NCBI GenBank assembly: GCA_030430205.1
Contig: JAUIGE010000039.1
Span: 1-58,129 of the forward strand
Reading direction: 5' to 3'
DNA length: 58,129 bases
Origin: Bacteroidia bacterium
GTDB lineage: Bacteria > Bacteroidota > Bacteroidia > J057
The position numbers and the translations under genes are program-made. This document shows, piece after piece, positions 50,451 to 58,129 of this stretch. The stretch's first letter is position 1. Every line of letters starts with the position of its first letter. The notes under the pieces are model-generated. The model did not search any database, had not been told where the DNA came from, and worked only from the letters and a program-made list of their open reading frames with translations.

Positions 50451-51173
50451 ATGAAACACACCTTGATCTTCCTGATTACGCTACTCGCGCTGACCCTAAA
50501 TGCTCAGGCCCAATCCTACGAAATGCTATATGCACCAGACACGACCTGGTATGACCCGGCAGATGGCGATGTGACGATAAGCTCCTACCTGAAGAACATT
50601 TCAGGCACTACAGATAGCATCTTTGCCAAACGCATCGCGAATGAACGGGCACCGGGTCATCGAACTGCCTTTGCCTGGAATCATCTTTCATTTGCCTATG
50701 AAATCAACTCATCTGAAGATGCAGGTATTTATGTGGTGCTACAGGATCAGGAAGTCGACAGTTCCTTCCAACTTGTGCTTTCGCCAGACCAAAATGGTGG
50801 GACAACAAAGGTGACTATGCGTTTTTACAATTTGAATGACACAAGTAAATGCCTGGATCAAACCTATGTGTTTGTTTCGAGCTCGGCTACTGCGATCTCG
50901 CAAACAGAGTTAGAGCATGGGATTATGCTTGGCAAGCCTTACCCGAACCCCGCTCATCATCTGGTCAATATCGACTATCAACTCCCAAAGCATAATCAAA
51001 AAGCATATGTATATGTGGTAACTCTTGAGGGGAAGCAGGTCTTGCAGCGCCCCCTTTCCCCTACTGAAAATAAAGCGACCTTGTCGATTAGGCAGCTTCC
51101 GGCTGGCGTTTATTTTATGTATGTAGGGCTTGATGGCCGTAGAATAGGTCAAACGAGATGTCTGATCAGGTAG
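50451..51173 (+). CDS. Secreted protein with T9SS sorting domain, unknown N-terminal domain
   Basis: The 240-residue product has a signal peptide (MKHTLIFLITLL..., cleavage near AQAQ). A beta-sandwich-like region of about 130 residues follows (TISSYLKNISGTTDSIF, YVVLQDQEVDS). The C-terminal type IX sorting domain starts GKPYPNPAHHLVNIDYQLP and ends LPAGVYFMYVGLDGR. It should be exported by the Por system. The N-terminal part resembles generic Ig-like repeats in such cargo and has no visible active site. The binding partner is unknown. Confidence 0.85.
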   Translation: MKHTLIFLITLLALTLNAQAQSYEMLYAPDTTWYDPADGDVTISSYLKNISGTTDSIFAKRIANERAPGHRTAFAWNHLSFAYEINSSEDAGIYVVLQDQEVDSSFQLVLSPDQNGGTTKVTMRFYNLNDTSKCLDQTYVFVSSSATAISQTELEHGIMLGKPYPNPAHHLVNIDYQLPKHNQKAYVYVVTLEGKQVLQRPLSPTENKATLSIRQLPAGVYFMYVGLDGRRIGQTRCLIR

Positions 51174-53089: not shown

Positions 53090-53655
53090 TGCAGTTGAGT
53101 TGTTCAAGCTTACATAATATAGGCAACTCCCAATTTAAAATTGAGCAGAATATACTCAGATACCCGGTCCCAGCCCATGTTGTAATCACGAGTTGGAATT
53201 GCAAAAAAAAGTAGACAGTAAAAAAGATTATGCTACATTTTGCAAATGTAGTAGCTGTTTGTCGAATAGATTGGGAGTTTGATATCCCAAAGCGGAGTGA
53301 AGTCTTTGATTATTATACCCTTGTAAGTAGAAAGGCAAAAGTGACAGATTTGGGCAAGGAGAAAGATATCTGTCAAGATCGCGGTGCTTGGTCAAAGGCT
53401 CATTGGTCTTTACCTCTATATGGGCGATGACCTCGCCCATAATCTCCCTATATGCCTTGCTATAATCGGGCTGGTAGAAATTGGAGATTTCCATACCCTG
53501 CCTGACCTCCATATTCACCGCAAGCTTTCGGCTGCTTTCTCTGGCGAGGATGATATCTTCCTGAGAGGGAAGAGCGGGGGTATTTATGTGATGATATGAG
53601 GTCTCACTATGCACTCTTTAATAGATGCAATAAACGAAATAAGTGCAATGGAAGT
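53090..53655. other. Decayed region with transposase remnant
   Basis: Between the secreted protein and the SEC-C gene there is no intact gene. The minus strand carries a short IS3 transposase end and an antitoxin-like N-terminus joined in one frame (53228-53614). On the minus strand, after the fragment's stop, a ctgtctacttttttt segment (around 53203-53219) could be the IS end. Confidence 0.55.
53228..53614 (-). pseudogene. IS3-family transposase remnant fused by chance to an antitoxin-like N-terminus
   Basis: The last 30 codons (53317 to 53228) read YNNQRLHSALGYQTPNLFD, the end of the IS3-family integrase core (YNxxRxHSALGYxTPxxF). The first 30-odd codons (53614 downward) read ALPSQEDIILARESSRKLA, which resembles the start of excisionase-like HTH antitoxins that partner PIN toxins. 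The middle matches neither. I read this as two decayed genes brought into one frame, not as a working 128-residue protein. Confidence 0.55.
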
Positions 53656-55290
53656 CTACTTCCCCAAACAACACTTCTTATACTTCTTCCCACTCCCACA
53701 GGGACAGGGAGAATTGCGACCCACTTTTTTCACCTGGCCTGGCAAGTGGGTCTTGGGCGGGCTCATCGATAGGGGTTTGGGTAATGTTGGAGGTGAAGCA
53801 GGCCTTTGATTCTCCGCTTTATCTTCTGTATAGTAAGCCCATGTATTGACTGCTTTATCATAAAATGAAAAGATGTCTCCAAATAGGGGATAACTGAAAG
53901 GAGGATATTTCTCCTCAAATGCTTCCTGGTAGCTTTCAAATGAGGAGAAATCAAAACTGCTTACTAATTCCTCCTCAAAAAAGGATTTAACCTGAGGCAA
54001 TAAGTCATGATTGCCCATTTCCAGTATTGCATATAAAATTGAGTCCAAAAAATCAGGGTCAAGCAGGCTTTTGTCTCTTCTATTTTCCCAGAAAAAAGTT
54101 AATAAGTGCCCAAAAATGGTAGCAACCTCCTCTTTTCTATCCGGTTGGTAATAAGCTACATGCGTAAAAACAGTGATGGCACAGCCTCTTGCATAGGTGT
54201 ATAATCCTGGCTCTTTGACAAAATCTACCACAGGCTCTAAGTCATCTGCGGTAATGGCATATAATACTTTCCAGAGATCTTCGGTCAAAAAATCTGAGAG
54301 AAAAAAGTCCAGCAACTCGTCCCCTTGCCTCAATAGGTCAAAAATGGATTCAAGCCCTTCCCTGGCTTTGAGTTCGGCCATGATGGCGAGGGCATGCAGG
54401 ACAAATTCTCCTTCCTCTCGTTTCCATCCGTCATTCGATTTTTCTTCATAGTATTCAAACCGACGGACAGCATCCTTCAATATTTCTGAAAGGTCTTTTA
54501 TGAGGCTGTCTCTCTCCAGCTTGAGGATATGAGTCAATCGTTCGCGGGGAATACTCAGGTCATTGGTATATAAATCCCTAATCTCCTCATGAATAAAAAC
54601 CGGAGGGCTCTCTGTCTGAATCTCTGTATTATATCCTCTTGCCTGATAAGCCAGGCTATCCGTTCTCTCTTTTCGAAATTCCATCTTGGCTGTCATTCTA
54701 TCCATCCCTTTTTTCAAAATTGCCATGGAAATTTCCCTTGCCCTATCTTCATCAATTTCTGCCAACATTTCCTGCACCTCTATCGCCTTATCTATATTAT
54801 CTGTCTCGATATAATAGTGTCCTGCCAGCCGATAATAAGAAACAAACTCCGTGACATGAAAGATTTCCCTTTGAGGAGCAAGCTCCCTGAGCTCAAGCTT
54901 CTCTCCCAAAGCAGCTCTCGTCTTTTCATAATCCTCCTGTTCCAGGTAATAGGAAGCCATATTTAAGGAGCCAAATAAATAAGCCGGATGCGCTGCGATC
55001 ATCTCTTGCGTAGTTTTCAAAAACTGATCAAAATTCTTCCTCTGGAAATGCCAGGTGGATAAAAACTGCTTAAATTGAGGTACATGAGGATAGCTTAGGA
55101 TAGCTAAAACAAGCTCTTCATACAGTTTTTTATCTGTAGCAGTCTTTTTGTTTTTGAGGGAAAGTAAAAAGTATTCAAGCTTATCGCCTACGGCTTCAAT
55201 ATACTGCTCATTGGAGTCTGCCTCAGTACCCTCATCTGTCAGGATATATCCATGGTGAAGGAAGGCGTGGGGAGGAAGGTTCTTTTTCAT
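53656..55290 (-). CDS. Helical-repeat protein with C-terminal SEC-C zinc motif
   Basis: The 544-residue cytoplasmic product has TPR-like helices in the first 200 residues (NFDQFLKTTQEMIAAHP, DYEKTRAALGEKL). A DUF1186/HEAT-like region follows in the middle (FVLHALAIMAELKAREGLE, GLYTYARGCAITVFTHVAYY), then a Pro-rich linker (about 500-520). The SEC-C motif GRNSPCPCGSGKKYKKCCLG ends the protein and coordinates zinc with CxC...CC. SEC-C tails occur on SecA and on many unrelated proteins as small interaction modules. Its role is unknown. It stands between decayed mobile-element sequence and the Avs-like gene. Confidence 0.83.
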   Translation of the reverse strand: MKKNLPPHAFLHHGYILTDEGTEADSNEQYIEAVGDKLEYFLLSLKNKKTATDKKLYEELVLAILSYPHVPQFKQFLSTWHFQRKNFDQFLKTTQEMIAAHPAYLFGSLNMASYYLEQEDYEKTRAALGEKLELRELAPQREIFHVTEFVSYYRLAGHYYIETDNIDKAIEVQEMLAEIDEDRAREISMAILKKGMDRMTAKMEFRKERTDSLAYQARGYNTEIQTESPPVFIHEEIRDLYTNDLSIPRERLTHILKLERDSLIKDLSEILKDAVRRFEYYEEKSNDGWKREEGEFVLHALAIMAELKAREGLESIFDLLRQGDELLDFFLSDFLTEDLWKVLYAITADDLEPVVDFVKEPGLYTYARGCAITVFTHVAYYQPDRKEEVATIFGHLLTFFWENRRDKSLLDPDFLDSILYAILEMGNHDLLPQVKSFFEEELVSSFDFSSFESYQEAFEEKYPPFSYPLFGDIFSFYDKAVNTWAYYTEDKAENQRPASPPTLPKPLSMSPPKTHLPGQVKKVGRNSPCPCGSGKKYKKCCLGK

Positions 55291-55708: not shown

Positions 55709-58012
55709 ATGAGCATCAATTGGAACAACATCAGACCTCTAAATAATTCCCAAAATGATGGATTTGAAGAATTGGTATGCCAACTTGCAAGAGTAGAAGA
55801 TATAAAAAATAGGAAAACATATATCCGAAAAGGAAAACCTGATGCAGGTGTAGAATGCTTGTGGGTTTTAAATAATAATGAAGAGTGGGCATGGCAGGCA
55901 AAATTTTTCACTAGTTCGTTAGAAGTTTCTCAATGGAATCAATTGGATGACTCTGTTAAAACTACTCTGGAGAAGCATCTCAATTTAAAGAAATACCATA
56001 TTGCAATTCCGATTGATCCACCAGACGCAAGGTTAAAGAATCAAATTTCATTCCTTGAGAAATGGAATAAAAGAGTAACTAAATGGAATAATTGGTCAAA
56101 AGAAAAAGGAATGGACGTAGAGTTTATTCCTTGGTGGAGTTCTGATTTAATTAATCGGTTACAGAAGCCCCCAAATGTAGGTTTGACATACTTTTGGTTT
56201 AATAAAGAAGAGTTTTCTGATGATTGGTTTAAATTTCAAACAGAGCTAGCGATCTCTGACTTGGGAAAAAGATATACCCCAGAACTCAATGTGGAACTAG
56301 AAATTTCTAAAATATTTTCTGGCATTTCTAGAGATAAGACCTTTTGTCAGGACGTCAATAAGTTATTTCACGAGTTAATTATTGAAAGTAAACAAGCCAT
56401 ACCGAAAACAAATGAACTTAAAACTGAGAAAGAATCGCTTATAAAGCTTGCTGTTTCCCTTTCTAGTTTATTCACTTCCACGGAGTTTTCTGGAATAAAT
56501 CCAATTCAGGTAGATCAACTTCAAGGTTTGACCAAAGATGCAGAGCAATTATCAGATAAAATCAGATCATTCTATATAGCTGAAGAAGATAAATTAGCGG
56601 ATAAAAAAGATCAACAAAGGTTTTATAAAAAATACACTTGGGAAATTCATCAACTAAACAAGTTTGATACAGCTGTTTACAATTTCAAAAGGTTCTTTGA
56701 TGGGTTTCGGATTAAATTGGCAAACCAACCTTTTTTAATTGTAGAGGGAGAAGCTGGTATCGGCAAATCACATTTACTTGCAGATGTAGTTAGTAAGAGA
56801 AATGCAATGGGCCTATTGACCCTTTTTTTTCTGGGGCAGCATTTTGTAACCGAAGAAGACCCCTGGACTCAAATATTTAAAAAGAATAAGATCCGTTGTT
56901 CTATTGACGAATTTTTAGGTGCAATCAATGCAAAAGCTCAATTAAGCCGAAATAGAGCACTTTTTATCATTGATGCAGTTAACGAAGGCAAAGGAAAATA
57001 TTTCTGGAAGTCAAACATTAAAAGTTTTCTATTGCAAGTGAGGAGGTATGAATGGCTAGGTGTAGTATTTTCTATTCGGTCTTCATATTCAGAATTAATT
57101 TTTCCAAGAGAAGAGTTAATGGACGATCTAATCCATCGTTACCGACACTATGGATTTAGATTTCAAGAGTATGAAGCAACAAAAATCTTTTTTGCAAACT
57201 ACGAGATTGCATTGCCTGAAATTCCTTTACTGCATCCAGAGTTTCAAAACCCTTTATTTTTAAGATTATTCTGTGAAGCCTTATTTAAAGCTGGGGAAAA
57301 AAGGATACCAGATGGTTTTCAAGGCATTTCAAGTATCATTGATCTTTTTCTAAATAGCATTAATAACAAGCTTTCTGAACCTATACGATTAAATTATTCC
57401 AAAGGAATAAATATTGTTAAGGAGGCCGTTGATCAGATAATTTCTCTTAGAATTGAAAATCGTCTCCAGCCTGTCTCTTACCAAAAAGCATTTAAACTAT
57501 TGCATAGGTTTTCACAGGAGTATGGCTTGAAACCTGGATTATTAGAGGAACTAATTTCTGAAGGCGTATTCTCCAAGAATATATTTTGGACGGAAAAAGG
57601 GAAAGATGAAGAAGGTATTTATTTAGCCTATGAAAGATTTGAAGATCACCTTCTCGGAAGCTTTCTAATATCAAAATACCCTAATCTTAAGGAGGCTTTT
57701 TCCAAGAGCGGGGAATTATACCATTTAATTGAGGATGAGAATAAATGCTTTTTGAATAAAGGGTTGATAGATGCACTTTCTATTCAAATACCAGAAAAAT
57801 GTAATTTTGAATTACACGAGTTAGTACCATCCTTGAGTTCCAGTTTCCCTCTTGTTGAAAGCTTTGTCCTGAGCTTAATTTGGCGCAAGAAAGAAACGAT
57901 TACGGAAAACCTTAAGGACTATATCAATACTGCTGTTTTTCAGTATCAAGAGTCATTTGAGCTATTTTGGGATACTGTCTTGACTGTTAGTTCAATACCT
58001 GGTGTCGGATGA
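55709..58012 (+). CDS. Avs-like STAND NTPase with N-terminal nuclease domain, truncated by an insertion sequence
   Basis: The visible 767 codons encode a PD-(D/E)xK-like nuclease domain, then a helical linker and a STAND NTPase. The nuclease part reads GFEELVCQLA near residue 10, PDAGVE near 45 and WAWQAKFF near 61. The NTPase has Walker A VEGEAGIGKSHLL near 350, Walker B LFIIDAVNEGKG near 418 and sensor VFSIRSSYSE near 455. This matches antiviral Avs proteins, which recognise phage terminase or portal and then cleave DNA. Such proteins normally run well beyond 1,000 residues with a C-terminal TPR-like sensor region. Here the frame ends at a TGA formed by the first bases of an IS21-like terminal repeat, so the sensor is missing. 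ATG 55709 is preferred over an upstream GTG at 55679. Confidence 0.78.
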   Translation: MSINWNNIRPLNNSQNDGFEELVCQLARVEDIKNRKTYIRKGKPDAGVECLWVLNNNEEWAWQAKFFTSSLEVSQWNQLDDSVKTTLEKHLNLKKYHIAIPIDPPDARLKNQISFLEKWNKRVTKWNNWSKEKGMDVEFIPWWSSDLINRLQKPPNVGLTYFWFNKEEFSDDWFKFQTELAISDLGKRYTPELNVELEISKIFSGISRDKTFCQDVNKLFHELIIESKQAIPKTNELKTEKESLIKLAVSLSSLFTSTEFSGINPIQVDQLQGLTKDAEQLSDKIRSFYIAEEDKLADKKDQQRFYKKYTWEIHQLNKFDTAVYNFKRFFDGFRIKLANQPFLIVEGEAGIGKSHLLADVVSKRNAMGLLTLFFLGQHFVTEEDPWTQIFKKNKIRCSIDEFLGAINAKAQLSRNRALFIIDAVNEGKGKYFWKSNIKSFLLQVRRYEWLGVVFSIRSSYSELIFPREELMDDLIHRYRHYGFRFQEYEATKIFFANYEIALPEIPLLHPEFQNPLFLRLFCEALFKAGEKRIPDGFQGISSIIDLFLNSINNKLSEPIRLNYSKGINIVKEAVDQIISLRIENRLQPVSYQKAFKLLHRFSQEYGLKPGLLEELISEGVFSKNIFWTEKGKDEEGIYLAYERFEDHLLGSFLISKYPNLKEAFSKSGELYHLIEDENKCFLNKGLIDALSIQIPEKCNFELHELVPSLSSSFPLVESFVLSLIWRKKETITENLKDYINTAVFQYQESFELFWDTVLTVSSIPGVG

Positions 58013-58129
58013 CATAGAGTTTTAAACAAAAAGTGACATATAGTTTTGCACACTTTTTTTATTTTAGTTCTTTGAAAATTTGAAAAATCAAGGACATGCC
58101 TATGCCTATTCCAATGGCCATCCGCCAGA
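58010..58129 (+). mobile_element. Left end of an IS21-like insertion sequence
   Basis: Two imperfect direct repeats (TGACATAGAGTTTTAAAC at 58010-58027 and TGACATATAGTTTTGCAC at 58034-58051, 24 bases apart) match the multiple terminal repeats typical of IS21-family ends. They are followed by an AT-rich leader and the start of a transposase-like gene. The rest lies beyond the window. Confidence 0.6.
58096..58129 (+). CDS. Start of an IS transposase (IstA-like), partial
   Basis: Only eleven codons are visible (MPMPIPMAIRQ). A start reading PIPMAIRQ followed by a helix-turn-helix is typical of IS21-like transposases. It is cut by the window end, and a start two codons later (58102) is possible. 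Confidence 0.45.
   Translation, partial: MPMPIPMAIRQ

What the first reader, a model, noticed from the sequence alone, without database searches (positions are those of the whole stretch)
55709..58129. Avs-like antiviral STAND NTPase interrupted by an IS21-like element
The protein begins with a PD-(D/E)xK-like nuclease and a STAND NTPase that strongly recall Avs defence proteins. Its stop codon is made by the first three bases of a terminal repeat, and a transposase start follows. The C-terminal sensor half is missing at this side. The gene may be dead, switchable by IS excision, or the remaining N-terminal half could still act as a nuclease-NTPase module.
Basis: partly seen in the sequence, partly recalled or inferred. 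Interest (0 to 1): 0.72.

Follow-up and report, generated by a model that had tools for sequence, protein, structure and literature searches.

The report
Antiphage gene avs2 split by transposon
A bacterium's large antiphage sensor gene (avs2) has been cut in two by a small jumping element, most likely switching that defence off; this is a well-preserved but ordinary kind of event.

Summary
Window 55709-58012 encodes the first half of an Avs2 antiphage STAND protein (PADLOC Avs2, 833.6 bits, profile 2-766 of 1504). The window is a whole contig (C46) that ends 127 bases inside an insertion sequence. The other half of the gene lies at the end of contig C11 of the same genome (profile 761-1494, 799 bits), behind the right end of the same element. 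The flanks share a 4-bp duplication, CTGG. With one copy dropped, the frame runs for 1491 codons without a stop and aligns to relatives across the junction. So this is one avs2 gene with one clean insertion.

Two details of the reading change. The element starts at 58003, so the stop is its bases 8-10, not 1-3. It is probably not IS21: the one complete relative found is 1357 bp with one (frameshifted) transposase gene, closest to IS481 but below the cut-off. Our element's body is not assembled.

The likeliest consequence is loss of Avs2 defence (inferred). The C-half frame gains an ATG inside the element, so a two-chain protein is conceivable but unsupported. An independent avs2::IS1 exists in E. 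coli CRE10. Ordinary; low interest.

The parts
55709..58002 (+). avs2 N-terminal half, host part: 764 whole codons plus two bases of codon 765 (nuclease-like domain, STAND NTPase and, by inference, the first part of the sensor)
   Evidence: PADLOC Avs2 PDLC02164, 833.6 bits, profile 2-766/1504; NCBIfam NF041813, 667.8 bits, cut-off 1000; PDB 9o4e Avs2, E 2.8e-119 from residue 168 on
55709..56218 (+). N-terminal effector region, PD-(D/E)xK-like: D45, E49, Q63 and K65
   Evidence: Invariant in 7 of 7 sequences of alignment A1, own included; in the wider D45 in 9 of 14 rows, E49 and QxK in 13 of 14; Mrr_cat_2 E 0.028 and NA37 E 0.016, both below cut-off; Avs4 8dgf E 0.13
56747..56773 (+). Walker A motif GEAGIGKSH (residues 347-355)
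   Evidence: Position and alignment
56960..56989 (+). Walker B-type motif LFIIDAVNEG (residues 418-427)
   Evidence: Position and alignment
57999..58002 (+). Left copy of the 4-bp target duplication CTGG; the right copy is on C11 next to the IS right end
   Evidence: Flanks compared; chance of a 4-bp match 0.4%
58003..58129 (+). Left end of the insertion sequence, cut by the contig end; 27-bp perfect terminal inverted repeat, 81-82% over 90 bases
58010..58012 (+). TGA stop of the truncated avs2, IS bases 8-10; each of the three frames entering this end meets a stop within 23 bases
58096..58129 (+). Start of the presumed transposase frame (MPMPIPMAIRQ), same direction as avs2, cut by the contig end
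   Evidence: by eye it resembles the start of the relative's transposase MPRSTSMAVRQQ

Best explanation
An intact, single-gene avs2 (about 1491 codons) of a probably Bacteroidota bacterium was hit by one insertion of an IS element at codon 765, in what is by family architecture the sensor region, with a 4-bp target duplication. The element gives the upstream half a stop after two and a third extra codons and separates it from the 727-codon remainder. Shown: two halves of one gene, matching IS ends, target duplication, no stop or frameshift in either half. Inferred: Avs2 needs its C-terminal half to sense the phage protein, so the strain has lost this defence, probably recently. The contig break is the usual effect of a repeated element on short-read assembly.
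For: Complementary profile coverage 2-767 and 761-1494 in one genome, the only two matches, both free of stops. The halves match solved Avs2 9o4e consecutively, chain 164-761 and 759-1451. CTGG duplication and a continuous 1491-codon frame; 13 of 13 relatives have no gap at the junction columns, one (G312) has a 5-residue gap three residues before it. A second pair of flanks of the same IS (C43/C35) shows TCCT on both sides. IS right ends identical over the 101 bases compared in 3 of 3 contigs. The 12 other phylum genomes with Avs2 at E<=1e-40 have it in a single open frame of 1385-1598 aa (only 2 candidates per genome were scored, so a further broken copy could be missed). C-terminal deletions abolish PaAvs5 immunity (PMC12931631, passages).
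Against: The IS body was not assembled, so the join C46-IS-C11 rests on ends, duplication and frame, not on a contig that spans it. Loss of function is inferred; PaAvs5 is another Avs type; there are no phage data. An intact allele in part of the population cannot be excluded without reads.
Confidence: 0.9

Rival explanations
1. Split but working Avs2: the N-half (767 aa) and a C-half (732 aa, begun at an ATG in the IS right end) are both made and assemble into a two-chain sensor-nuclease.
For: The C-half frame opens with an ATG inside the terminal repeat (MSSDTGHHF...); the presumed transposase frame reads in the same direction as avs2; neither half holds a stop.
Against: An in-frame ATG is expected by chance: two of the three frames leaving this IS end hold an ATG that stays open to the edge. 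No promoter or ribosome site was shown; a simple Bacteroidota promoter pattern (recalled) printed nothing at the right end, but it printed nothing upstream of avs2 either, so that test says little. The 12 other phylum genomes have one-frame genes.
Confidence: 0.05
2. Reversible switch: the IS leaves precisely and restores avs2 in a fraction of cells.
For: Target duplication and stop-free halves would allow it.
Against: No third, intact avs2 match is in the assembly; precise excision of such elements is rare (general knowledge); the flanks of the other copies are a repeat-rich tract and a frame that I recall as IS110-type, by eye only.
Confidence: 0.03
3. The element is an IS21 member.
For: TG...CA ends and two repeated motifs in each end fit IS21; the duplication is 4 bp, against the 5 bp seen for the IS21 element of PMC10122671 (passages).
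Against: The one complete relative is 1357 bp with one transposase gene; its two pieces score best with NCBIfam IS481 (55.4 and 43 bits), then IS630 (41.1, first piece only) and IS21 (24.8 and 15.3), every one below its cut-off. The rve search of the genome (0 matches) says nothing, since the body is unassembled and the relative's pieces do not match rve either.
Confidence: 0.15

Closest known systems
Avs2 (AVAST type 2), e.g. PDB 9o4e
   Same: N-half residues 168-765 and C-half residues 4-701 of 732 match it consecutively; Walker motifs kept.
   Different: Gene is interrupted at codon 765; the first 167 residues do not align to 9o4e, so the effector domain may differ.
avs2::IS1B in Escherichia coli CRE10 (NZ_CP034404.1)
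   Same: Independent avs2 broken by an IS; by eye a 9-bp target duplication, TTCACTTAA, and a stop supplied by the IS.
   Different: Other IS family, other insertion point, other phylum.
IS insertions into cas genes (PMC10359306, passages)
   Same: Natural inactivation of an immune system by IS.
   Different: CRISPR-Cas rather than a STAND sensor.
   Same: Ends 77-78% identical over 90 bases, short duplication CGTGG.
   Different: Its transposase is frameshifted; from another genus of the same family.

Membership tests
Avs2 | Match to Avs2 profiles over the whole length | tested here: met
   PDLC02164 2-767 plus 761-1494 of 1504, in two pieces
Avs2 | NCBIfam NF041813 curated cut-off of 1000 bits | tested here: inconclusive
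   N-half 667.8, C-half 842, each alone below the cut-off; the joined protein was not scored
Avs2 | STAND NTPase with Walker A and B motifs | tested here: met
   GEAGIGKSH and LFIIDAVNEG; Pfam NACHT and nSTAND3 only below cut-off
Avs2 | N-terminal nuclease effector | tested here: inconclusive
   D45/E49/Q63/K65 in 7 of 7, D45 in 9 of 14; Mrr_cat_2 E 0.028 below cut-off; prediction pLDDT 38
Avs2 | Senses a phage packaging protein and protects | not testable with these tools
   Needs a phage assay
IS21 | About 2-2.6 kb with istA and istB (size partly recalled; one example of 2631 bp in PMC2516522, passages) | tested here: inconclusive
   Own body not assembled; relative 1357 bp with one gene. 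In the own genome IstB gave 5 matches, 3 over the cut-off, in frames of 328-1416 aa that I did not examine; 13 of 14 control genomes ring too. rve 0 matches
IS481 | About 1-1.4 kb, one DDE transposase gene of this family | tested here: inconclusive
   Met by size in the relative; best NCBIfam family there, but below the cut-off of 224 bits
Insertion sequence | Terminal inverted repeats and target duplication | tested here: met
   27-bp perfect repeat; CTGG and TCCT duplications in the 2 pairs of flanks that could be paired; the fifth end, C9, has no partner

The most novel reading that the evidence does not exclude
The IS supplies both a stop for the first half and a start for the second, turning a one-chain Avs2 into a two-chain one that still senses phage.
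Probability: 0.05. Interest if true: 0.55.

Novelty: new member of a known kind. Interest (0 to 1): 0.2.

Why it matters
It adds one clear natural case of an antiphage STAND gene broken by an IS, outside E. coli, and shows that such halves can be scattered over contigs and be miscounted as partial or as whole systems. As a break in the middle of the protein it also gives a natural truncation point to copy in a laboratory Avs2.

Tried and rejected
Avs2 in close relatives as an intact allele: of 60 relatives searched (own included) 7 match at E<=0.001; only the own genome matches strongly, the other 6 are weak partial matches, and the same-genus genome G001 has none. Synteny in G001: the upstream neighbour gives 3 matches to its C-terminal tail only, and a downstream AraC-type regulator gives 9, best 34% identity, so no empty locus could be defined. 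Defence-island context: the C-half and 9 neighbouring proteins against PADLOC; apart from avs2 only an AAA/DUF4143 protein (PDC-S01, E 1.5e-86), tail matches of the SEC-C protein and a partial mad2 match of a methyltransferase-like frame. Full copy of the IS: the exact 27-base border gave 2 loci in genome contigs, both cut at a contig end and 0 in viral contigs; the looser pattern 2 of 22 genomes of the order, own included; the relative's transposase piece in the own genome 0, which the tool says shows nothing by itself; in plasmids 13 records, the best by my reading a broken copy. Avs2 elsewhere: none in viral contigs by a close-relative search; 1 phage record over 37% of the query; 70 plasmid records, all below 60% identity. 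AlphaFold of the N-domain alone: pLDDT 38, not searched further. Alignment: three relatives (G066, G338, G378) were read on the wrong strand; those rows were dropped and redone. Papers: the listings of searches showed no report of an IS in an avs2 gene; two searches added nothing used here.

Full report
What is there. The window is the whole of contig C46 of a 7.24 Mb genome in 80 contigs. An ATG at 55709 opens a frame of 767 residues that ends at TGA 58010-58012. PADLOC gives 6 families, all Avs2, best 833.6 bits over profile positions 2-766 of 1504; NCBIfam gives Avs2 at 667.8 bits, under the cut-off of 1000, as expected of half a protein. Pfam matches are all below cut-off, NACHT and nSTAND3 best. 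The solved Avs2 9o4e aligns from residue 168 on (E 2.8e-119). GEAGIGKSH (347-355) and LFIIDAVNEG (418-427) are in place. That the host is of the Bacteroidota is an inference from a type IX secretion sorting domain in a window protein (50451-51173, 40.5 bits, cut-off 27).

The other half. The same Avs2 profile finds two places in the genome: C46 (2-767) and C11:136599-138782 on the minus strand (761-1494, 799 bits, no stop). The C11 frame matches NCBIfam Avs2 at 842 bits and 9o4e at E 6.2e-203, chain 759-1451. C11 ends right there, in an IS end.

The element. The border pattern occurs 5 times in the genome, each time within 127 bases of a contig end: C46 and C43 (identical 127-base left ends), C11, C35 and C9 (right ends, identical over the 101 bases compared). 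The overlap of 127 bases suggests an assembler word length, so the repeated body was probably dropped (inference). Flanks pair up: C46/C11 by CTGG, C43/C35 by TCCT; C9 has no partner and lies in a frame that I recall as IS110-type, not tested. A 4-bp match arises by chance in 0.4%. With one CTGG dropped the avs2 frame runs 1491 codons; in 13 of 13 aligned relatives there is no gap at the junction columns, and one of them (G312) has a 5-residue gap three residues before. Codon 765 is Gly on both readings.

Stop and start. All three frames entering this end stop within 23 bases, so any insertion in this orientation would truncate. At the other end an ATG in the repeat opens the C-half frame (732 aa); two of three frames there have such an ATG, so it is no surprise. 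Nothing shows that it is used.

Which IS. A relative with ends 77-78% identical over 90 bases lies whole in G004:C455:2786-4142: 1357 bp, CGTGG duplication, one transposase broken by a frameshift. Its two pieces hit IS481 best (55.4 and 43 bits, cut-off 224), then IS630 (41.1, first piece) and IS21 (24.8 and 15.3). The ends themselves fit IS21 too (PMC10122671, passages). A published IS21 element is 2631 bp with istB and an IS481 element 1105 bp (PMC2516522, passages). I favour IS481-like; the own body must be read to decide.

How common. Of 395 phylum genomes, 13 (own included) have Avs2 at E<=1e-40; the 12 others show an open frame of 1385-1598 aa with no stop, 3 of them as two profile matches inside one frame (2 candidates per genome scored at most). 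Of 5426 E. coli genomes, 87 match the first 4000 bases of a V. parahaemolyticus avs2; I saw two overlapping spreads of 40 and 60 of these 87, in which one, CRE10, is in two pieces, with an IS1B and a 9-bp duplication. The rows not listed were not seen. IS loss of immune genes is published for cas genes (PMC10359306, passages).

Function. STAND proteins have an N-terminal effector, a central NTPase and a C-terminal sensor, and Avs1-4 recognise terminase, portal or another phage protein (PMC12931631, passages). The break leaves effector, NTPase and some sensor on one side and 727 of 1491 codons (49%), by inference all sensor, on the other. In PaAvs5 short C-terminal deletions abolish immunity (same passages). 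Loss of function is therefore the best reading. The halves hold no stop or frameshift, so the event is probably recent (inference).

Nuclease. The pattern D45, E49, Q63-x-K65 is invariant in the 7 closest sequences; in the wider set of 14 rows D45 is kept in 9 and E49 and QxK in 13, the exception being the V. parahaemolyticus protein, whose N-terminus is of another kind. Pfam and PDB profile hits are below significance, so the nuclease label is likely but not shown here.

Verdict. Confirmed observation, interpretation corrected in detail, ordinary in kind.

Noticed in passing
L067 (E. coli CRE10 NZ_CP034404.1:4451804-4461497): Independent avs2 interrupted by IS1B with a 9-bp target duplication; RefSeq calls the C-half alone avs2 and the N-half a hypothetical protein, which may mislead counts of defence systems.
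   Followed up: yes
L026 / G004:C1092:4325-4543: A 219-bp MITE-like derivative of the related IS, with both terminal repeats and no room for a transposase; no clear target duplication.
   Followed up: partly
G000:C9:22791-22917: Third right end of the same IS, inside what I recall as an IS110-type transposase frame (not tested); its left flank was not found.
   Followed up: partly
L029 and L030: IS left ends identical by eye to the window's (111 and 127 bases) in MAGs titled Bacteroidia and Oligoflexia with the same bin naming: transfer between phyla or mis-binning.
   Followed up: no
window 53228-53614 (-): Remnant of a transposase C-terminus (rve_3, 22.2 bits, below cut-off) about 2 kb upstream of avs2.
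   Followed up: no
window 53656-55290 (-): DUF1186/SEC-C protein next to avs2; in the same-genus genome G001 only its SEC-C tail finds matches.
   Followed up: partly
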